From a virus, in IMG/VR virus record IMGVR_UViG_3300020200_001360, positions 1 through 21,434 of that record: 21,434 nucleotides of DNA. The stretch is one strand, 5' to 3'. The position numbers were made by a program, and so were the translations under genes. Of the stretch, positions 4,387 through 18,062 are shown piece by piece. Positions within the stretch are counted from its first letter, which is position 1, and each line of letters starts with the position of its first letter. Below the pieces are notes generated by a model. It saw nothing but the letters and a program-made list of their open reading frames with translations. It was not told the origin of the DNA and did no database searches.

Positions 4387-5574
4387 TTATAATAACCAAC
4401 TTAAATCAACATCATTACCCCTAATATCTTTCATTAAGTAAGGATTTTGTTGATATCCGTTGTTAGAATACACTCCCTTATCACCTGATATTTTGATTAT
4501 ACTACCCAATGTGCTACGGGTTAAATCCATACCTTGCTTTCTTAATTTTAGTGCAGTATCCCTTACCCATAAACCTGTTGAAAATGATATTACCAAATCA
4601 TCGTTGTAACCCCTTTGTGCTTCTGCCTTTGAACCATTCCAAATAAAGACAAATAATTCATCTATTAATCGTTTGGAATGAATAATCGGAACTTTTTCTC
4701 GCATATAAGTATCTAATTTTGATACTATAAGAGGACGGGTTCTTTGTGTCATTGAAAATCCTGGCACCATATCCTCTTTTAATTTTAGGTCCCATCCCCT
4801 CCGCAGGTGAATATCATCATCTACATAACCCAACTCCCTATATGAATAATATAAATTTTGATAGTTACGGTCAATTGCCTCCTGAATAACTGCCCACCCA
4901 ATATTTGCATTTTCAATCACCAAAAGAGCATTATTCCACTCCGTTGCAACTGATGTTAAGAACGCGCCATACTGCTTTGTTTCTATCTTACCTCTATATT
5001 CTGCAACCTGTTCAACCGATTCCACATCAATGACATGAAAAGCGGAATAATCCGCACCATCACCCCTCGCAACATCCGCCACAACAACATAATCTTTTTC
5101 GTAATTTGGATAATCCCATATCCAATAATTCGCATCAAACCCACGCTTTTCAACAGGTTCGGTAATGTAAGTTTCCTTATACCACTCCAAAACGCTACCA
5201 TCTACAACGGTATAACCTGATGATATGAAATCGCAATTATGTGATACAACACCATCTACATTAAATATATTACCCCCACCAACCTCAACAATATCATACA
5301 ATGTAGTATCCATATCAGCATATTCAATAGATACCACATCAACATATTGATTATCAACCGATGATATTTTAGAACCTACTACCAAATCGGAAGCCAATAT
5401 CTTTTCACCATCCAACATAAATGGGTGGTTATCTGAACATTTTAGTGTTTTTCCGTTTGAAAAGGTTATTGTATAAATTGAAGTCTTGTTTAAGCACCTC
5501 ATTCCACCAAACGGCTGAAAGCCGCTTGGCGTCATTATTTCAAACCTATTATTTGCTTTAAAATTATAATTCAT
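4387..5574 (-). CDS. terL: Terminase large subunit, C-terminal half with intein C-fragment
   Basis: This 395-residue protein carries an intein C-fragment (residues 1-113) and then the terminase nuclease half (114-395). The extein begins CDFISSGYTVV, the natural continuation of the N-half that stops at QECD. The RuvC-like nuclease acidic residues are visible: D167 in VVADVARGDGADYS, E221 in LVIENANIGW and D325/D326 in GYNDDLVIS. Spliced to the 244-residue N-extein it would give a terminase of about 526 residues, shorter than T4 gp17 (610) but complete in both domains. The start codon lies inside the end of the endonuclease gene (11-nt overlap), so translation is probably coupled to it. No ATPase motif is encoded here, so this polypeptide alone cannot package DNA. 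Confidence 0.92.
   Translation of the reverse strand: MNYNFKANNRFEIMTPSGFQPFGGMRCLNKTSIYTITFSNGKTLKCSDNHPFMLDGEKILASDLVVGSKISSVDNQYVDVVSIEYADMDTTLYDIVEVGGGNIFNVDGVVSHNCDFISSGYTVVDGSVLEWYKETYITEPVEKRGFDANYWIWDYPNYEKDYVVVADVARGDGADYSAFHVIDVESVEQVAEYRGKIETKQYGAFLTSVATEWNNALLVIENANIGWAVIQEAIDRNYQNLYYSYRELGYVDDDIHLRRGWDLKLKEDMVPGFSMTQRTRPLIVSKLDTYMREKVPIIHSKRLIDELFVFIWNGSKAEAQRGYNDDLVISFSTGLWVRDTALKLRKQGMDLTRSTLGSIIKISGDKGVYSNNGYQQNPYLMKDIRGNDVDLSWLL
5236..5574 (-). other. Intein C-fragment (IntC, 113 residues) of an atypically split TerL intein
   Basis: Residues 1-113 of the C-terminal terminase gene form the intein C-part. Block B is seen as LKCSDNHPF, with His50 (SxxH in place of TxxH). Block F is LYDIVEVGGGNIFNVDG, and block G is VVSHN with His112, Asn113 and the nucleophile Cys114 as the first extein residue. 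Block B normally belongs to the N-part. Its presence here means the split lies between blocks A and B, unlike the usual split site where an endonuclease domain would sit. This matches the architecture of the AceL-TerL split intein from Ace Lake metagenome data (25-residue IntN, 104-residue IntC). Confidence 0.9.
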
Positions 5575-6304
5575 TATGCTTCACTCTGATAAAGTTACAT
5601 GACAATAATTTTTCTATTTCAAATTGGCGTATTAAATCTTTTTGTTTAAGTTGACCATTTTCATCAAAGTGATGTTTTTCATCGTATTCTATTACAATAT
5701 TTTTTTCCTTGCTATATCCATCGACAAAATAACCAAGTTCTTTTATATAGTATTCACCACCATTTTCAGCATGTTGTAAGTCGGTTATACCCAATTTTTT
5801 TGCAACTTTTTCTATTTCTACAATTGAGTTATGGTTGTATCGCGGAACAGCTTTACCTTTTAAACTTTGAATATATTTTAATGTAGATACTCTCATCTTA
5901 TTTTTGGTAATGTTTGTATGCTTTTTACCAAAAAACGATTTTTTTGGCTCTGGGCAGTGTCTACAATACTTTTCCCAATTATAAACTTTTCCACACTCAC
6001 ATTTTAATTTTTCCAAATCACCATTATTTTCCGTTAAAAAAATCATACGATATTTGAAGTTATATTTTCCTTTATAGGTATTTTGCAATTTCAGCATATC
6101 TTCAAGAGGTTGGGTATGATAGTAAATTGATTTATACAATTTTGGGTTTTCACATATCATTGTTCTATTTTTAGCTCTACCAAAATAATTTTTATAATAA
6201 TACTCTCCTAATAATAATTGAATTGTTTCTTCAATAGAATATACTTCTGATATACTATCTATATTATTTTTTATTTTTTGCCAACCATCTTTTATATATT
6301 GCAT
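5564..6304 (-). CDS. Free-standing homing endonuclease, Vsr-like (EDxHD) family, inside the fractured terL locus
   Basis: This 246-residue protein probably cuts intein-less terL alleles so that the split-intein locus can spread. A Cys cluster KCECGKVYNWEKYCRHC (C102, C104, C114, C117) suggests zinc binding. Residues 124-138 (FFGKKHTNITKNKMR) resemble a NUMOD-type DNA-binding helix. The C-terminal domain reads GYFVDGYSKEKNIVIEYDEKHH (in part), with Asp195, Glu206, Asp208, His211 and His212, then FIRVK. This is the layout of Vsr-like nucleases described in 'fractured genes' with split inteins (Dassa and colleagues, 2009). It lies between the two terL halves. Upstream the coding strand has GAAAGGGGTTT before the ATG and a candidate promoter motif. 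Its last codons overlap the next start by 11 nt. The nuclease family is fairly sure; its target is inferred. Confidence 0.85.
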   Translation of the reverse strand: MQYIKDGWQKIKNNIDSISEVYSIEETIQLLLGEYYYKNYFGRAKNRTMICENPKLYKSIYYHTQPLEDMLKLQNTYKGKYNFKYRMIFLTENNGDLEKLKCECGKVYNWEKYCRHCPEPKKSFFGKKHTNITKNKMRVSTLKYIQSLKGKAVPRYNHNSIVEIEKVAKKLGITDLQHAENGGEYYIKELGYFVDGYSKEKNIVIEYDEKHHFDENGQLKQKDLIRQFEIEKLLSCNFIRVKHNEL

Positions 6305-6332
6305 AAACCCCTTTCATTTACACTCTTGTGAT

Positions 6333-6346
6333 AATAAATATGAAAT
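6333..6346 (-). promoter_or_regulatory. Spacer motif, candidate promoter of the endonuclease gene
   Basis: Reading ATTTCATATTTATT in the transcription direction, it starts at the stop codon of the terL N-half and ends 28 nt before the endonuclease ATG. It could drive the endonuclease and IntC-TerL genes separately from the N-half. Function is inferred from motif recurrence. Confidence 0.4.
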
Positions 6347-7170
6347 TATAATCTATCATATAACTCAAATAAGGATATTTCACAAATTTCACCTGTATGG
6401 GTATCTTTTACAACCACATTCGAATCTCCCCACAAACAATCGCATTCTTGAGCAGCACCCGTTTCACCCAATAATCTTGTTTGTTCTTCCCGCCACCTAT
6501 TACTTCTTTCTGGGTGAACTGTCCAATGTAACTTTGTTGGATGCCACTTATCACCATTTTCTCCTTGTAACCAAATTTTATGAAAGAAATTACCTACCCC
6601 GTTTGGTGTTGAAAGAACGATAGTACCACCACCTGTTGAAAGTGTGGATTGCGCTGATAACCATATTTCCTCAATACCTTTAATATGTGCGGCCTCATCA
6701 ATAATCAACAACGATAGTGCTTCAGAACGTCCTGCCGTTTCAGTCGCAGATACTGCTTTAATTTGAGAACCATTTTTCAATCTAAGTGATAATTTGTTAT
6801 CTTCGGAAGCAGCCACTTTTAACCAACTTGGTAGGTTATCATGCATAAACCTAACTTTGGTTACAAGGTTTTTTGCAACATCCTGATTAGTGGCGATTAC
6901 AAGTATGTTTTTATCCCTTTCAAACATCATCAACCAAAGAGAATACCCCGCTGATATAGTAGATATACCTAACTGACGTGATTTAAGAATAACATTGAAA
7001 CGATGATTTTTAAAATCATCAATTAGGTTTTCCTGAAAATCGTAAAGGTTGAATAATATCTTGCCCTTGTGTGGGTGTTGTATATAACAATATTTTTTGA
7101 AAAAATATATGGGGTCTGTAGCGCACTTTACATACTCCTCAGATATTATCTCCTTTAAGCTTTTTGACAT
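6346..7170 (-). CDS. terL: Terminase large subunit, N-terminal ATPase half ending in intein N-fragment
   Basis: This 274-residue protein is the packaging-motor ATPase half of TerL. Counted from the ATG, KSRQLGISTIS (63-73) is the Walker A region, LLIIDEAAH (155-163) is Walker B with Asp158/Glu159, and TIVLSTPNG (183-191) is the coupling motif. The Walker A lacks the usual GK[T/S]; the lysine sits at its front (Lys63), as in lambda gpA-type terminases. The extein ends at QECD (244). The remaining 30 residues start with Cys245 and form an intein N-fragment. I chose the ATG at 7170 rather than an in-frame TTG five codons upstream, because GGAG lies 9 nt before it and TAATG links it to the preceding stop. 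No small-terminase gene is recognisable next to it. Confidence 0.92.
   Translation of the reverse strand: MSKSLKEIISEEYVKCATDPIYFFKKYCYIQHPHKGKILFNLYDFQENLIDDFKNHRFNVILKSRQLGISTISAGYSLWLMMFERDKNILVIATNQDVAKNLVTKVRFMHDNLPSWLKVAASEDNKLSLRLKNGSQIKAVSATETAGRSEALSLLIIDEAAHIKGIEEIWLSAQSTLSTGGGTIVLSTPNGVGNFFHKIWLQGENGDKWHPTKLHWTVHPERSNRWREEQTRLLGETGAAQECDCLWGDSNVVVKDTHTGEICEISLFELYDRL
6349..6438 (-). other. Intein N-fragment (IntN, 30 residues) of an atypically split TerL intein
   Basis: After the extein end QECD the sequence reads CLWGDSNVVVKDTHTGEICE and ends ELYDRL before a stop codon. Cys1 and the GDS.V......G pattern form intein block A. It resembles the AceL-TerL IntN as I recall it (CVYGDTMVETEDGK..., ending DLYKRLA). 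No block B follows, since that is on the partner fragment. A fragment this short is typical of the atypical split class. Confidence 0.88.
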
Positions 7171-11863: not shown

Positions 11864-11880
11864 TATAAATATACTGAAAT
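11864..11880 (-). promoter_or_regulatory. Spacer motif, candidate late promoter
   Basis: ATTTCAGTATATTTATA in the transcription direction, 12 nt before the 194-residue gene's ATG and touching the stop of the 1049-residue gene. It keeps TTCA and ATTTATA but has extra bases between them. Confidence 0.38.
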
Positions 11881-14800
11881 TAATAGAATAAACCCAAAAT
11901 TTGATTTAAACTAGCGAAACTTCCAGTTAGCTTCAGCGTATTTCCCTTATATACAAAAACTATTCCCTCATTCGGAACAATTTTATCAGGACCGCCTACT
12001 GCCGCCATTCTTTCAAGCTCTAATTGTAATTTTCTTATCTTTTTTTCATCCCCACCACTTTGAACATCTTTAATCGTTTGGTCTAATCGTTGTTTCATAT
12101 TACGAACTGCTGAATCTGGGTTTATTGTCAATACCGAACTCATCAACGATAATACTTCTGCACCAACACCTAAGAATATATCTTCAAATGGACGGATATT
12201 ATCTTTTGATATTTTTTGGTGGTCATTCTTATCTACACCCTTTGCCCATTCTAATACCTTGTCTGATTTGATGTTATTATTATTTAACACAAAACTCTTA
12301 TCGTAAAATGCCCATCTTTTTATTAAACCTTCTCTTGTTGATTTATCCAATTTTTCAGGTGAGTTTTTATCTATGAAATCTCCCCACCACGCCTGATGAT
12401 ACTCTGCCATACCATCACTATCTTTTAAACCATATTTTGATTGTAGTTTGTTTAACATCCCCAAGTACTTTGGTTGTAATTTTTCCAAGTGCATTTCCTT
12501 TGGTAGTTGTGTAATAGGTGGTCCTTGTATTGTGTATTTATCCTGTATATGCTGATTGATTTGTTTAATCATTCCCGCCAATACCGCTGCATCAGATTGG
12601 TCTGCCCCAATAGCAACACCCGATTCATCATATTCAGTAGTATTATGAAAAACCAAAAGAGCCTGACCATAAGGTATTACATTTACTGATGTTGGATATA
12701 TAACTTCCAAATTCATAAACTTCACACCCTGTTTGAAAATTTTATCCCTTTGTGCTTTTGATAACCCCTTTACTGCGGTTTCTAAATCCCGCATAGCAAA
12801 GTTGTAAGCATCAGTCAATCCACCCCTACCTCCGAACTTTGAAGCAACATCTGCGGCGTTCATTGCATCTTCGCCCCGATTAGCAAGGTGCCCCTTGTTT
12901 CTTGCAGCAATTAACCCCTTATCATCTCGCCAACTAATAGCAAGTGCCTGCCCATCGGTCTTTTCTCGAGTTAATTCTAAATCACCTTTTAAGGCCTTTG
13001 TTATTATATTTTTTAAATCACCAAAAGTTAAACCCAACTCTAAATCAAACGGATGATTCATGTGTCCGTATGCCCCACCGCATAAAAGTAATATACGATT
13101 ATCCAATTTATGTTCACTATGAGTTATATCTTTTATTAAGGTTCGCAATTTAATGCTAGAACCACCACCTTTACTCTCATTTAAACTGTGATGTTTTATT
13201 TCTAAATTTTTATAATGTGAAATCACCTCTATGGGTATATTATTATTAAATCCGTCCAATATAGAATATTTGTGGTCTAAGTGATATTCTCTACTACGCT
13301 TTTTGGCATTTGGTATTAAATTAAAATATTTAAGATATTCATCATTTGTTAATCTACGAACATTTTCAACATATATTAAATACGCATTTCTATTTTCAAC
13401 AGGTGTCCAATTTAAAATGTTTGCTATTGTTTTTTGAGTTTCTTTATTACCAAATCCAAATTGTTTACCAACATTACTTCTTAATTCTTTAAGTGATGCA
13501 TTATTGATGTATGATTTTCTAACACCTTCTGATATTTTTTTTCTAAATAATATGTTTTTATTTTTTTCAGAAACATCTAATCTAATTTTTCCTTTGTTTT
13601 TACCCATCATCAGATTACTATGATTTTTTTTGTATTCATCCGATTGCATTATTTTTTTATGTTTCTCTTTAACAATCGTAGAATTCATTGGATTTTTATC
13701 TCCAAAATTTTTAAAATGTTCTGATATCAATGGGTGATTTGGATACTTTTCTATGTATTCTTTCATAGACATACGATGTGAGTATTTTAAGTGTCTGTAT
13801 TGTATCTGTTTAAACCATTCACCACACTCCGCACATTGTACCATTCCGCTTTTTTCATAATTGTTGTAATCACCCGACAAAAACTTAGAAAACTTTTTAC
13901 CAATTCTTTCTAATAACTTATATTGCTTTCTATCTATTATTTCTAATTTTTTTCCAATTACCCATTCAACAATCTCATATCCTAACCCCCTAAATACTTC
14001 CTGCAACTCCTCATCCTCCATACCAGTAACATCAATCTCTACTTCGGGTGGAGCTTCAGGCGGTGCAACATCTAATGGTGTAGTAGCAATATCAGCAGTT
14101 ACATAATCTTCTGTTTCGGGTATATCTAAAAGGTCATCCATTGTGAATACCTTTCTTCTAACCGCATACTGATAGTAATCACCAGTATTTTTTGCATTTC
14201 GTTTAACTATCATATCTGCTTTTGGAAACTCCATTTGTGTATACCCACCACGAACAAACCAATAGTCATTTTTTTGCGCATCTTTACCTAAACCCAATAC
14301 ACGCTTTTTACCCGATGGAACATAAATTGCATCGGGCTCACCTGCATCTGCGCCGTATCCACTTCCCAATGTTGATTCAATAAGGGGAATTAAATTATAC
14401 TTATTAAAGAATTCTGATATAATTTCGTTTACTCCACCCAGCTTTTGGGTTATCATATTGTATATTTTTGGGTTAAACTTTGGATATGCTTTTTTAAATC
14501 CTGCTTTTCTTTGTGATTCATCTCCGGTCGATAACCATTTTCTTACATCCGTTCCACTTATTGAGTTTGCCTGCATTGGTGATGTGTATACATAACCACT
14601 TTCCCCATAACCACTCGCAGGTTTAAATCCGGCTCCAGCATGAAACTTTTTGAAATATTTACCACCCAATCGTTGTGCATCCTTTTCTCCTACTACAGTT
14701 ACAAATGCCGTTGTTTTGGGTGAAAATCCACTTAATATTTCAGTTGGATTATATGGGTTTTTTACCTGCACTACCTTATTTTTTGGGATATCAAACATTG

Positions 14801-15029
14801 TAGTCATTATTGTTTTTTTCTCCAAAAAGTTAAAGGGGTCTTTCGGCCCACCACTTTTATTGGATGTCCCAATCCAAACCGCATCCTTACCAAACTTTTG
14901 AACTAAATGTGAATAGGTAGCATAATGCCCCTTGTGGAAAGGTTGAAACCTGCCCGCGTATACTACCACTATATCTTTTACTTCTTCGGTTAATATCCCC
15001 CTAACCCATTCTTTTATTAAATTTCCCAT
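11880..15029 (-). CDS. Two-domain nucleotidyltransferase/ligase-like phage protein with in-frame HNH insertion
   Basis: This 1049-residue protein has several parts. After a leader ending GILTE|E (11-15), residues 20-200 form a HxGH nucleotidylyltransferase: GRFQPFHKGH (26-35) and SISGTDVR (156-163), as in NMN or pantetheine-phosphate adenylyltransferases. Residues 205-355 are a phage-specific β module (RGGYTQMEFPKAD) with an acidic Pro-rich linker. Residues ~356-625 are an HNH homing-endonuclease-like insert. The rest (~645-1049) has CGGAYGHMNHPFD, EKTDGQ with Lys690 as a KxDG ligase-type motif I, IAARNKG (707-713) and NLEVIYP (773-779), like DUF6267 phage proteins. KxDG suggests covalent nucleotidyl transfer, perhaps to nucleic acid. 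The two activities could act together in NAD or RNA/DNA repair, which is inference. The substrate is unknown. Start: the ATG is 3 nt after a spacer motif. Confidence 0.85.
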   Translation of the reverse strand: MGNLIKEWVRGILTEEVKDIVVVYAGRFQPFHKGHYATYSHLVQKFGKDAVWIGTSNKSGGPKDPFNFLEKKTIMTTMFDIPKNKVVQVKNPYNPTEILSGFSPKTTAFVTVVGEKDAQRLGGKYFKKFHAGAGFKPASGYGESGYVYTSPMQANSISGTDVRKWLSTGDESQRKAGFKKAYPKFNPKIYNMITQKLGGVNEIISEFFNKYNLIPLIESTLGSGYGADAGEPDAIYVPSGKKRVLGLGKDAQKNDYWFVRGGYTQMEFPKADMIVKRNAKNTGDYYQYAVRRKVFTMDDLLDIPETEDYVTADIATTPLDVAPPEAPPEVEIDVTGMEDEELQEVFRGLGYEIVEWVIGKKLEIIDRKQYKLLERIGKKFSKFLSGDYNNYEKSGMVQCAECGEWFKQIQYRHLKYSHRMSMKEYIEKYPNHPLISEHFKNFGDKNPMNSTIVKEKHKKIMQSDEYKKNHSNLMMGKNKGKIRLDVSEKNKNILFRKKISEGVRKSYINNASLKELRSNVGKQFGFGNKETQKTIANILNWTPVENRNAYLIYVENVRRLTNDEYLKYFNLIPNAKKRSREYHLDHKYSILDGFNNNIPIEVISHYKNLEIKHHSLNESKGGGSSIKLRTLIKDITHSEHKLDNRILLLCGGAYGHMNHPFDLELGLTFGDLKNIITKALKGDLELTREKTDGQALAISWRDDKGLIAARNKGHLANRGEDAMNAADVASKFGGRGGLTDAYNFAMRDLETAVKGLSKAQRDKIFKQGVKFMNLEVIYPTSVNVIPYGQALLVFHNTTEYDESGVAIGADQSDAAVLAGMIKQINQHIQDKYTIQGPPITQLPKEMHLEKLQPKYLGMLNKLQSKYGLKDSDGMAEYHQAWWGDFIDKNSPEKLDKSTREGLIKRWAFYDKSFVLNNNNIKSDKVLEWAKGVDKNDHQKISKDNIRPFEDIFLGVGAEVLSLMSSVLTINPDSAVRNMKQRLDQTIKDVQSGGDEKKIRKLQLELERMAAVGGPDKIVPNEGIVFVYKGNTLKLTGSFASLNQILGLFY
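13155..13964 (-). mobile_element. In-frame HNH homing-endonuclease-like insertion (boundaries approximate)
   Basis: Within the 1049-residue frame, about residues 356-625 look foreign. They hold a C2H2-like finger (CAEC at 399-402, His413, His418, then YIEKYPNHPL), a NUMOD3-like FGDKNPMNS (442-450), helix-rich repeats (MMGKNKGKIRLDVSE), and an HNH core EYHLDHKYSILDGFNNNIPI with His583, Asp585, His586, NLE (608-610) and Asn617. Codons are more AT-rich than the flanks. Flanking sequences read as two halves of a phage protein. No intein blocks (initial Cys, terminal HN) and no clear group I intron core were found. It may be an unspliced domain, a degenerate intein, or an open intron. The endpoints are uncertain by tens of bases. 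Confidence 0.7.
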
Positions 15030-16249: not shown

Positions 16250-17244
16250 TGTAGTATTTTATTTAATTCATTAAAATCAAACATTTCGTTTATATTTTCA
16301 TATGGGCACTCATGCAATACTCCATCAAATGAATAATCAAATAAATATGCATCTACTAATTTTGTATTTCCTTTTGGTGGTAGAGCTTTTATATTAGTGT
16401 GTAAATCATACCCAAAGTTTTCGGGTGATGTTCCAATCCATAATACAACAGAAGGTAGATTAAAACCAGCAGCAGCATGCTGTAAACATGAATCTATTAA
16501 TATCCGTTTATCGGAAGCGGCTACTAATGCAAATAATTCTGCGGCGGTGGTAGGTGTATTAACAATCTCTGCTCCCATAATTTGTGGGGAGTTTGGTCTT
16601 GTAACTTGTATTATGTGGTGGGTATTAACATATTTATTTGCTATTTCGGTAGCAAGTTCAATAGGCATATCCCTTGTCCAAGCATAGTTGTAATTTTGAT
16701 TTTGAAAAAATCCACCATTAGTGTGAATTAAACAAATTGGTTTATTCCGCTTCCACCCCTCAATTAATTTTTGTTGAACCATATTTAATCTTAAATCAGG
16801 TGTAAATGGTGATTTTATATCTATACCCAATAAATCAGCCCAGTTTTTAATTAAATGTTTTCGTTTTAAAATGTGCCCTGTTTGAAAATAGGGTTCGTGT
16901 CTAAATACCAATGTATCTTTATTTAATATATAATCATCATAAAAATATGCTGTCATTCCGACCCTATAAACTCTATATACATCTGGGTGATTAAGAAATA
17001 CTTCGGGATAAGATGCTACTATAATTATTTTTCGGCTTGGGTATTTTTTTGCTATGTGGGGTATTAATGTGGTTGCTGCAATGTTTTTACCTAAACCACC
17101 CTCAATATGCCACACTAAAAACTTGTTATCCATATTATTATCTTTATTTTGTGCTAATGAAACTATTATTGGAGAATGGTTTTCGTTGGGTATTTCAATG
17201 GAATTAAAATTAAACTCACTATTAGTTTTAAACCCTACTTTCAT
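16246..17244 (-). CDS. GT9-like (heptosyltransferase-type) glycosyltransferase
   Basis: This 332-residue GT-B fold protein resembles ADP-heptose:LPS heptosyltransferases. After a ~40-residue N-terminal extension, WHIEGGLGKNIAATTLIPHI (45-64) is the N-domain acceptor loop. The C-domain shows ELATEIANKY and ASDKRILIDSCLQHAAAGFN (243-262), followed by VVLWIGTSPENFGYD, the donor-binding half of the family. An internal ATG at codon 38 would give a more standard length, but the ATGA coupling with the sulfotransferase gene supports the long form. The sugar donor and acceptor are unknown. It may act on host LPS or on a phage-made glycan. Short coupling on both sides indicates one operon with the sulfation genes. 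Confidence 0.75.
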   Translation of the reverse strand: MKVGFKTNSEFNFNSIEIPNENHSPIIVSLAQNKDNNMDNKFLVWHIEGGLGKNIAATTLIPHIAKKYPSRKIIIVASYPEVFLNHPDVYRVYRVGMTAYFYDDYILNKDTLVFRHEPYFQTGHILKRKHLIKNWADLLGIDIKSPFTPDLRLNMVQQKLIEGWKRNKPICLIHTNGGFFQNQNYNYAWTRDMPIELATEIANKYVNTHHIIQVTRPNSPQIMGAEIVNTPTTAAELFALVAASDKRILIDSCLQHAAAGFNLPSVVLWIGTSPENFGYDLHTNIKALPPKGNTKLVDAYLFDYSFDGVLHECPYENINEMFDFNELNKILQ

Positions 17245-18062
17245 ATTTTATATTCAAAATCATTAAAAAACCAAGCATAATTGTTTTCAATTATTTTACA
17301 CGCATTTACCCCCAAAACCTCTATAAAATCTTCTTTTAAAGGTTTGATTTCATTTCTGATTATATGGTCTCCAAAAATACCATACCATTTATCATCCTCG
17401 TGGGTTACTTGTTTGATATTTTTAAAATCATGATTATAATAAGGTAATTCTAAATACTCATACACCCTCTCCATTTGTGCCTTTGGGTTAGAACACAGTT
17501 CTTCAAATTTTATAAATAGTATATTTTTGTGTAAACCTTGTACCAAAACCTGATATATTCTATCCATTGATGGTCCAATTGGTGGGTTTGCAGACCAAAC
17601 TTCTACTCTTTTATCGGTAGTAGTACCTGTTAAATTTCCCCAATTTGCTAAATGGTGGTCTAAAAGAGGGTGTTTTCTAAACTTTTTTTCCATAGAAGCA
17701 TAAACCGCTCTTATATCCCTAATCATGCAAATAATTTTTGGATTAGGTTCAAATGCGTTTATAAACTCCCATTCAGAGTTCCACCCCCTACATTTATCAA
17801 CTACATATGGTTTATCGGTGATGTTGTTAAAAAACCCATATAATCCACCTTTTAAGTATCCTCTAAACCCATTTAACATTTCTTCTTCGTTTTGGGCTTT
17901 AAACTCTAACCCATCGGTAAAGATTGTTCGAGACGCGGCTAACATTTCAAATAATCCTGATGTGGGTGTGGTATAAAATTCTGAATTTTGTCCCAATATG
18001 TTCTGCATTAAAGTAGAACCAGCTCTAGGCATAGAGCTATTGTAAAATATTTTTTTAACCAT
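17241..18062 (-). CDS. PAPS-dependent sulfotransferase
   Basis: This 273-residue protein transfers sulfate from PAPS to a hydroxyl or amine, probably on a glycan. The 5'-phosphosulfate loop is SSMPRAGSTLMQNIL (9-23). The 3'-phosphate site is CMIRDIRAVYASM (112-124), with Arg115 and Ser123. FIKFEELCSNPKAQMERVYE (183-202) is the usual third conserved block. The length is normal for the family. It starts the tight run sulfotransferase, GT9-like, APS-kinase-like, nucleotidylyltransferase, DUF2061. The upstream neighbour is a small structural-looking gene. Its products could be sulfated host LPS, capsule, or virion sugar. Such genes occur in marine phages, where their targets are not known. Family call is firm. 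Confidence 0.88.
   Translation of the reverse strand: MVKKIFYNSSMPRAGSTLMQNILGQNSEFYTTPTSGLFEMLAASRTIFTDGLEFKAQNEEEMLNGFRGYLKGGLYGFFNNITDKPYVVDKCRGWNSEWEFINAFEPNPKIICMIRDIRAVYASMEKKFRKHPLLDHHLANWGNLTGTTTDKRVEVWSANPPIGPSMDRIYQVLVQGLHKNILFIKFEELCSNPKAQMERVYEYLELPYYNHDFKNIKQVTHEDDKWYGIFGDHIIRNEIKPLKEDFIEVLGVNACKIIENNYAWFFNDFEYKI

What the first reader, a model, noticed from the sequence alone, without database searches (positions are those of the whole stretch)
5564..6304. Vsr-like homing endonuclease placed outside the intein
The nuclease (Asp195, Glu206, Asp208, His211/His212, Cys4 cluster) is not inside an intein domain but is a free gene exactly at the break in terL. It would still be inherited with the split intein, because cutting an unbroken terL followed by repair would copy the whole break. 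This is an unusual way for a mobile element to link to its host gene.
Basis: partly seen in the sequence, partly recalled or inferred. Interest (0 to 1): 0.65.

Follow-up and report, generated by a model that had tools for sequence, protein, structure and literature searches.

The report
Homing nuclease inside a fractured terL
A phage gene for the DNA-packaging motor is broken in two and rejoined at the protein level by a split intein, and a DNA-cutting gene that probably spreads this break sits in the gap; the arrangement is a known kind, but its relatives carry a likely copy of the nuclease's own target site next to its promoter, which makes the target testable.

Summary
Confirmed, with corrections. 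The 246-aa ORF (5564-6304, minus) lies between terL-N/IntN and IntC/terL-C. Its C-terminal 95 residues are predicted as a Vsr-like PD-(D/E)XK core of the EDxHD/I-Bth0305I type; its N-terminal half is a separate helical/Cys4 domain. The split intein belongs to the AceL/GOS/Cat-TerL family.

Relatives support homing. More than 170 intact terL genes show the precise empty site QECD^CDF, and carriers are scattered among them. The nuclease N-half occurs only at this terL break (56 of 56 loci in an unbiased scan), while the catalytic half occurs elsewhere too and is swapped in some loci. HEN-less, HEN-remnant and unsplit versions exist.

Main new point: between IntN and the nuclease, 15 of 26 dereplicated relatives carry a near copy of the empty terL site (shuffles 0.05), mostly three bases after a promoter-like TATNTAT. 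That composite gives 13 hits in 2.9 million viral contigs, all in this gap. The likely role is an autorepression operator, as for I-TevI. The window's own copy is weak (11/16). No cleavage, binding or splicing was tested.

The parts
6439..7170 (-). terL N-terminal extein (ATPase half), 244 aa, ends ...GAAQECD
   Evidence: Pfam Terminase_6N 2.6e-12; PHROG terminase 7.6e-46; junction located
6346..6438 (-). IntN, 30 aa from Cys1, plus stop codon
   Evidence: sequence; conserved 46-93% in relatives with the same split point
6343..6352 (-). left copy of direct repeat ATTATAATTT at the edge of the nuclease cassette
   Evidence: 9 of 300 shuffles as long; HEN-less allele L406 keeps one copy
6334..6342 (-). 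promoter-like CATATTTAT upstream of the nuclease
   Evidence: ATATTTAT recurs 10-40 nt upstream of 7 gene starts in the window, 0.37 expected, 0 of 5000 shifts
6315..6330 (-). degenerate copy of the terL homing site, CACAAGAGTGTAAATG (weak in the window, 11/16 to the consensus; strong in relatives)
5564..6304 (-). free-standing homing-endonuclease gene, 246 aa
5954..6304 (-). nuclease N-half (residues 1-117): helical domain ending in a Cys4 cluster; found only at the terL break
5567..5848 (-). Vsr-like catalytic core (residues 153-246); invariant E184, D195, E206, E209, H212, D223
5561..5570 (-). right copy of direct repeat ATTATAATTT
5236..5574 (-). IntC, 113 aa, ends ...VVSHN
   Evidence: Pfam Intein_splicing 3.8e-4, below its curated cut-off; profile matches engineered TerL intein CatC 6dsl_B, E 3.8e-26
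4387..5235 (-). terL C-terminal extein (nuclease half), starts Cys+1 CDFISSG
   Evidence: PHROG terminase 2.4e-13; 54.7% identical to intact TerL of Microcystis phage Mel-JY01

Best explanation
The ORF encodes a homing endonuclease of the Vsr-like (EDxHD) kind and is the mobility gene of a fractured terL. The terL gene is cut at QECD^CDF by an atypically split intein; TerL-N-IntN and IntC-TerL-C are made separately and trans-spliced. The nuclease is proposed to cut uninterrupted terL at that site in a co-infecting phage, and repair from the carrier copies IntN, nuclease and IntC together. The insertion destroys the site, which protects the carrier. The N-half is proposed to recognise terL DNA; the C-half cuts. 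In many relatives, and weakly here, the cassette has its own late-promoter-like element followed by a copy of the homing site, most simply an operator by which the nuclease limits its own expression, as in I-TevI. After fixation the nuclease gene decays and is deleted, leaving a split or a contiguous mini-intein. Shown by sequence: anatomy, empty sites, patchy distribution, N-half restricted to terL, decay alleles, conserved site copy. Inferred: cutting, recognition by the N-half, homing, autorepression, splicing.
For: Fold: AF2 pLDDT 85.5; residues 153-246 match RAP domains, I-Bth0305I and Vsr. NUMOD3 in 14 of 32 relatives, DUF559 in 6. Empty site: more than 170 intact terL with QECDCD at the junction, some 78-81% identical to W; L005 carrier and L144 empty are 91% identical in TerL, while L005's nearest carrier is 70%. 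Patchiness: 14 carriers among 143 terL rows need at least 10 changes. N-half: all 56 loci found by an N-half pattern alone are at terL, 117 of 117 overall; the C-half is also in 38 loci elsewhere. N-half and IntC distances correlate after control for terL (partial r 0.43-0.53). Decay: 10 split loci without an intact nuclease, 6 contiguous mini-inteins, remnants in L370, L417, L424, L426. Site copy: 15 of 26 loci, shuffles 0.05; composite 13 of 13 in this context.
Against: No cleavage, binding or splicing data. Foldseek alone is not significant (I-Bth0305I E 0.32) and Z 6-7 is moderate. Catalytic-half and IntC distances are not correlated beyond terL among site-b carriers (partial r 0.06), so not every part always travels together. 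The window's own site copy is weak, a copy is absent in about 5 of 26 loci, and it was not found in the site-a and distant terL groups. Patchiness could be differential loss. The residue match to I-Bth0305I's active site was not checked.
Confidence: 0.85

Rival explanations
1. The nuclease homes into nuclease-less split inteins: its target is the IntN/IntC joint, not uninterrupted terL.
For: HEN+ and HEN- alleles of the same intein exist (W and L406: IntN 100%, IntC 99.4%; L001 and L423), so the cassette is a discrete unit.
Against: The joint sequence varies widely between loci, whereas the site copied next to the nuclease is the terL site. Several HEN-less alleles keep nuclease remnants, so they are losses.
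Confidence: 0.08
2. The terL-site copy upstream of the nuclease is a relic of the terL exon dragged along when the cassette arose, without function.
For: It is a part of the interrupted gene; in 8 of 15 loci it lies in the reading frame of the nuclease, mostly as QECxC.
Against: Conserved across deep divergence at a mostly fixed 3-nt spacing from TATNTAT; frame varies 8/6/1 and stops occur, so it is not protein-coding constraint; it keeps CAA where the host terL uses CAG in 6 loci; in a few loci copies flank the promoter in inverted orientation (by eye).
Confidence: 0.3
3. The protein is a domesticated phage function (for example a repair nuclease or a regulator of terL expression), not a mobility gene.
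For: Purifying selection (dN/dS 0.04/0.61); own promoter-like element.
Against: Absent or reduced to remnants while the split terL persists in several lineages; patchy distribution; no Pfam Vsr match.
Confidence: 0.06
4. The ORF is an unrelated free-standing nuclease that happens to lie here and targets another gene.
For: Relatives of the catalytic half lie in other contexts (L017-L060).
Against: The N-half is found only at this break in 56 of 56 loci.
Confidence: 0.02

Closest known systems
Fractured genes (Dassa et al. 2009, NAR 37:2560, doi 10.1093/nar/gkp095; from my own knowledge of the abstract, paper not held)
   Same: Conserved phage gene broken by a split intein with a free-standing, often Vsr-like, endonuclease gene between the halves.
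   Different: Target here is terL. A homing-site copy beside the nuclease promoter and a target-gene-restricted N-half are not described in any paper I could read.
AceL-TerL, GOS-TerL and Cat-TerL atypically split inteins
   Same: TerL host, IntN of 25-37 aa and IntC of 104-115 aa (PMC11766414), split after helix 1 (PMC13014065), Cys1/Cys+1 as in AceL; IntC profile matches CatC 6dsl_B at 3.8e-26.
   Different: Those papers describe splicing only; the nuclease is not discussed in what I read.
I-Bth0305I (EDxHD homing endonuclease, 3r3p)
   Same: Vsr-like catalytic core, separate DNA-binding part, phage origin (PMC3943268).
   Different: Low identity; N-half has no match in PDB or BFVD; located in a split-intein gap.
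I-TevI autorepression (PMC2988022)
   Same: Homing-site copy (15/20 nt there) at a late promoter upstream of the endonuclease gene.
   Different: GIY-YIG enzyme in a group I intron; binding and repression shown there, only sequence shown here.
Aeromonas phage PX29 genes 17A/17B
   Same: terL fractured by a split intein with a nuclease (GenBank note).
   Different: GIY-YIG nuclease fused to the IntC half.

Membership tests
Fractured gene | conserved gene broken in two by N and C intein halves | tested here: met
Fractured gene | free-standing endonuclease gene between the halves | tested here: met
   not fused in the window (own ATG, stop before it)
Fractured gene | halves trans-splice to a working protein | not testable with these tools
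   catalytic residues Cys1, Asn113 and Cys+1 present
AceL/GOS/Cat-TerL split intein | sequence relationship of IntC and short IntN | tested here: met
   CatC 6dsl_B E 3.8e-26; IntN 30 aa
Vsr-like PD-(D/E)XK fold | alpha-beta-beta-beta-alpha-beta core with structural match to Vsr superfamily | tested here: met
   AF2 topology; RAP domains Z 8-11, I-Bth0305I 6.8, Vsr 6.0; caveat: Foldseek E above 0.001
EDxHD homing endonuclease | E, D, H, D catalytic residues as in I-Bth0305I | tested here: inconclusive
   E184, D195, E206, H212, D223 invariant; not mapped residue by residue onto 3r3p
EDxHD homing endonuclease | site-specific cleavage of the element-free allele | not testable with these tools
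   empty site defined
Vsr mismatch-repair enzyme | match to Pfam Vsr family | tested here: not met
   only DUF5417 listed, far below cut-off
I-TevI-type autorepressor | homing-site copy at the promoter of the nuclease gene | tested here: met
   met for the family: 15 of 26 loci, shuffles 0.05, mostly fixed spacing, exclusive in 2.9 M contigs; weak in the window itself (11/16)
I-TevI-type autorepressor | nuclease binds the copy and represses | not testable with these tools
   no binding or expression data

The most novel reading that the evidence does not exclude
A Vsr-like homing endonuclease of a fractured gene represses itself through a copy of its own terL target placed just downstream of a late promoter, using a recognition domain of unrecognised fold that is specific for this one site and is shared between different nuclease cores. 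This would be convergence with I-TevI in an unrelated nuclease class and would give the recognition sequence directly.
Probability: 0.5. Interest if true: 0.68.

Novelty: new member of a known kind. Interest (0 to 1): 0.5.

Why it matters
The arrangement itself is known, but the set of relatives gives a near-complete homing cycle for one gene site: empty, contiguous mini-intein, split without nuclease, split with nuclease, nuclease remnant, nuclease fused to one half, nuclease core swapped, and terL broken twice. The conserved homing-site copy predicts the recognition sequence (about CACAAGAATGTGATTGT) and a regulatory circuit, both testable with one purified protein. The target-bound N-half with exchangeable nuclease cores is a natural modular recognition domain.

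Tried and rejected
Pfam, NCBIfam and PHROGs searches of the window protein alone gave nothing useful. Profile search of the PDB with the nuclease alignment found no relative. N-half fold searches in PDB and BFVD gave no match, which does not prove a new fold. Genome contigs and phage scans for the N-half found none; the phage scan did not return Va1, whose N-half was found by profile, so single-sequence scans miss distant members. An IntC alignment was too variable to scan with and was replaced by a junction DNA pattern. Flanking direct repeats were tested in 11 carriers: only the window's 10-nt repeat is longer than most shuffles, so target duplication on insertion is not supported in general. 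A first Mantel test (r 0.85 for nuclease and IntC) weakened in a larger set, and I rely on the latter. The site copy was not found in site-a or distant terL loci. Dassa 2009 and the I-Bth0305I paper could not be read, so whether the site copy has been reported there is unknown.

Full report
WHAT IS THERE. The window is a 21,434-base viral record with its genes on the minus strand. terL is in two pieces. The first (7170-6346) ends ...GAAQECD followed by 30 residues that start with Cys (CLWGDSNVVVKDTHTGEICEISLFELYDRL) and a stop. The second (5574-4387) begins with 113 residues ending ...NVDGVVSHN, then CDFISSGY and the rest of TerL. Family searches name both outer parts as terminase. The IntC profile matches the engineered TerL intein CatC (6dsl_B, E 3.8e-26), so this is the AceL/GOS/Cat-TerL kind of atypically split intein. 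The 246-aa ORF of the finding (6304-5564) fills the gap, and its stop codon overlaps the IntC start by 11 nt.

THE PROTEIN. In 32 relatives the invariant residues include H178, N181, G183, E184, Y192, D195, N202, E206, E209, H212, D223 and R226. AlphaFold2 gives pLDDT 85.5. Residues 153-246 form an alpha-beta-beta-beta-alpha-beta core whose best structural neighbours are mitoribosomal proteins (Z 9-11, RAP domains by my own knowledge), FASTKD4 (7.7), I-Bth0305I (6.8) and, lower, Vsr (6.0); Foldseek alone is not significant (I-Bth0305I E 0.32). NUMOD3, a homing-endonuclease module, is found in 14 of the 32 relatives and DUF559 in 6. The N-terminal half (residues 1-120) is predicted on its own with pLDDT 87.5 and pTM 0.81, helical with a terminal Cys4 cluster, and has no match in PDB or BFVD. 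The gene is under purifying selection: dN/dS 0.04/0.61 against L001.

TWO HALVES, ONE SITE. A scan of viral contigs with an N-half pattern alone returned 56 loci. Every one lies in a broken terL, where the contig shows the neighbourhood. Across all loci held, 117 of 117 N-half loci are at terL or the intein, while the catalytic half alone occurs in 38 other loci. In L331-L338, L340, L341, L344, L350, L353-L355 (TerL about 30% identical to the window's) the N-half is joined, where read, to a different Vsr-like core (..PDFLMGKKIIEYDGKYWH..), and in L351 and L358 to a third variant (DUF559 above its cut-off in L341, L351 and L358 but no match in L331). L350 is cut off before the core. The Vibrio phage Va1 carries an N-half-like domain and such a core fused to IntC-TerL-C. 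The N-half is therefore the part tied to the target; that it binds DNA is inferred.

EMPTY SITES AND MOBILITY. Pattern scans found many intact terL genes; more than 170 read QECDCD across the junction, and the closest match the window's joined flanks at 56 of 66 nt. On a tree of 143 TerL rows, 14 carriers require at least 10 changes of state. L005 (carrier) is 91% identical in TerL to L144 (empty) but 70% to its nearest carrier, with a 1,200-nt insert at exactly QECD^CDF. Sampling was by pattern, so these are minimum counts, and differential loss is not excluded. In the larger set the N-half and IntC distances correlate beyond what terL explains (partial r 0.43-0.53, p 0.004 or less); the catalytic half does not do so consistently. 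A second site, QE^CD, 6 bp upstream, is used by L013, L019, L021 and others.

LIFE CYCLE. An independent scan with the IntC/terL-C junction pattern gave 72 contigs. Of those that show the upstream side, 39 are split with the nuclease, 10 are split without a detectable one, 6 are contiguous mini-inteins without it, and 2 carry partial nucleases. L423 is 97-99% identical to nuclease-bearing L001 over 2.7 kb upstream and lacks the gene. L406 is almost identical to the window in the intein (IntN 100%, IntC 99.4%) but only 89% in terL-N, and its joint equals the window with the cassette removed at the direct repeat ATTATAATTT. L370, L417, L424 and L426 keep remnants of the cassette, which shows loss, not only gain. 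So the fracture can outlive its nuclease.

THE HOMING-SITE COPY. Between the IntN stop and the nuclease start, many relatives read TAT[T/G/A]TAT, three bases, CAAGAATGTGATTGT, the last being the empty terL site (QECDC). Of 26 dereplicated site-b carriers, 15 match CAAGAATGTGATTGTG at 13 of 16 or better, against a mean of 0.05 in shuffles (at most 2 loci in any of 200 shuffled sets); using each locus's own terL, 9 loci reach 13 of 16 at the junction and at most 2 at any offset away from it. Locus by locus the signal is weaker: the junction word beats every control window in 8 of 35 loci. The spacing to TATNTAT is 3 nt in most loci. The composite pattern, scanned over 2.9 million viral contigs, gave 13 hits, all in this gap. 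The reading frame relative to the nuclease differs among loci (8, 6 and 1) and the copy keeps CAA where several hosts' terL has CAG, so the constraint is on DNA and the copy is not refreshed from the host gene. In the window ATATTTAT lies 10-40 nt upstream of seven gene starts (0.37 expected, 0 of 5000 shifts), which marks it as a promoter-like element of this phage. This is the layout of I-TevI, whose homing-site-like operator overlaps its late promoter and which represses itself (PMC2988022). The window's own copy (CACAAGAGTGTAAATG) is weak, 11 of 16, and some loci lack one, so the operator reading is a family-level inference.

WHAT IS KNOWN. Split-intein fractured genes with free-standing Vsr-like endonucleases were described by Dassa and colleagues in 2009 (cited in PMC3229294, PMC6892783 and PMC10448857; the paper itself is not held, and its content is given from my own knowledge). 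TerL split inteins are established tools (PMC11766414, PMC13014065). PX29 genes 17A/17B carry a GenBank note of a split intein and a GIY-YIG endonuclease. The finding is therefore a new member of a known kind. The site copy at the promoter, the terL-restricted N-half and the core swaps are the parts I did not find described.

Noticed in passing
L345 1462-5868 (also L346-L348): terL broken twice: three TerL pieces, two split inteins and two free-standing nucleases, the first with a TnsA-like domain (PF08722, 1.2e-6).
   Followed up: partly
L332 4902-7298 (by the same position shift, likely L333-L338): The TerL-C piece also holds a conventional LAGLIDADG intein, so one gene carries a split and a contiguous intein.
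   Followed up: partly
L007 3110-4765: Nuclease fused in frame to TerL-N-IntN without an ATG of its own near the joint.
   Followed up: partly
L298, L300, L301 (Vibrio phages K469, VP-1, 1.244.A): TerL-N-IntN followed in frame by a GIY-YIG nuclease, then IntC-TerL-C in the next ORF (GIY-YIG confirmed by Pfam in L298): a different nuclease class in the same arrangement.
   Followed up: partly
L013, L014, L016, L019, L021, L323, L342: Intein inserted 6 bp upstream (QE^CD) of the usual QECD^CDF; most of these nucleases carry an extra N-terminal finger (KCxxC...HLxxxH).
   Followed up: partly
window 4378, 6340, 2423, 8125, 10896, 11871, 15040, 18480 (minus): Recurrent TATTTAT element just upstream of gene starts, probably the phage's late promoter.
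   Followed up: partly
L046 3-2076; L018 4503-10087: Catalytic-half relatives of the nuclease next to, or 3 kb upstream of, an intact terL; L046's site reads QECDADF, which lacks the Cys+1 needed for the intein.
   Followed up: no
L326-L328, L012 gap: Site copies appear on both sides of TATTTAT, one of them inverted; could suit a dimeric binder.
   Followed up: no
window 6349-5236 against L406: Intein 99-100% identical while terL-N is 89%: a recombination tract that starts near the insertion point.
   Followed up: partly
window 17241-18062 and 11880-15029: Phage-borne sulfotransferase (PF13469) and a 1049-aa protein with a cytidylyltransferase-like domain.
   Followed up: no
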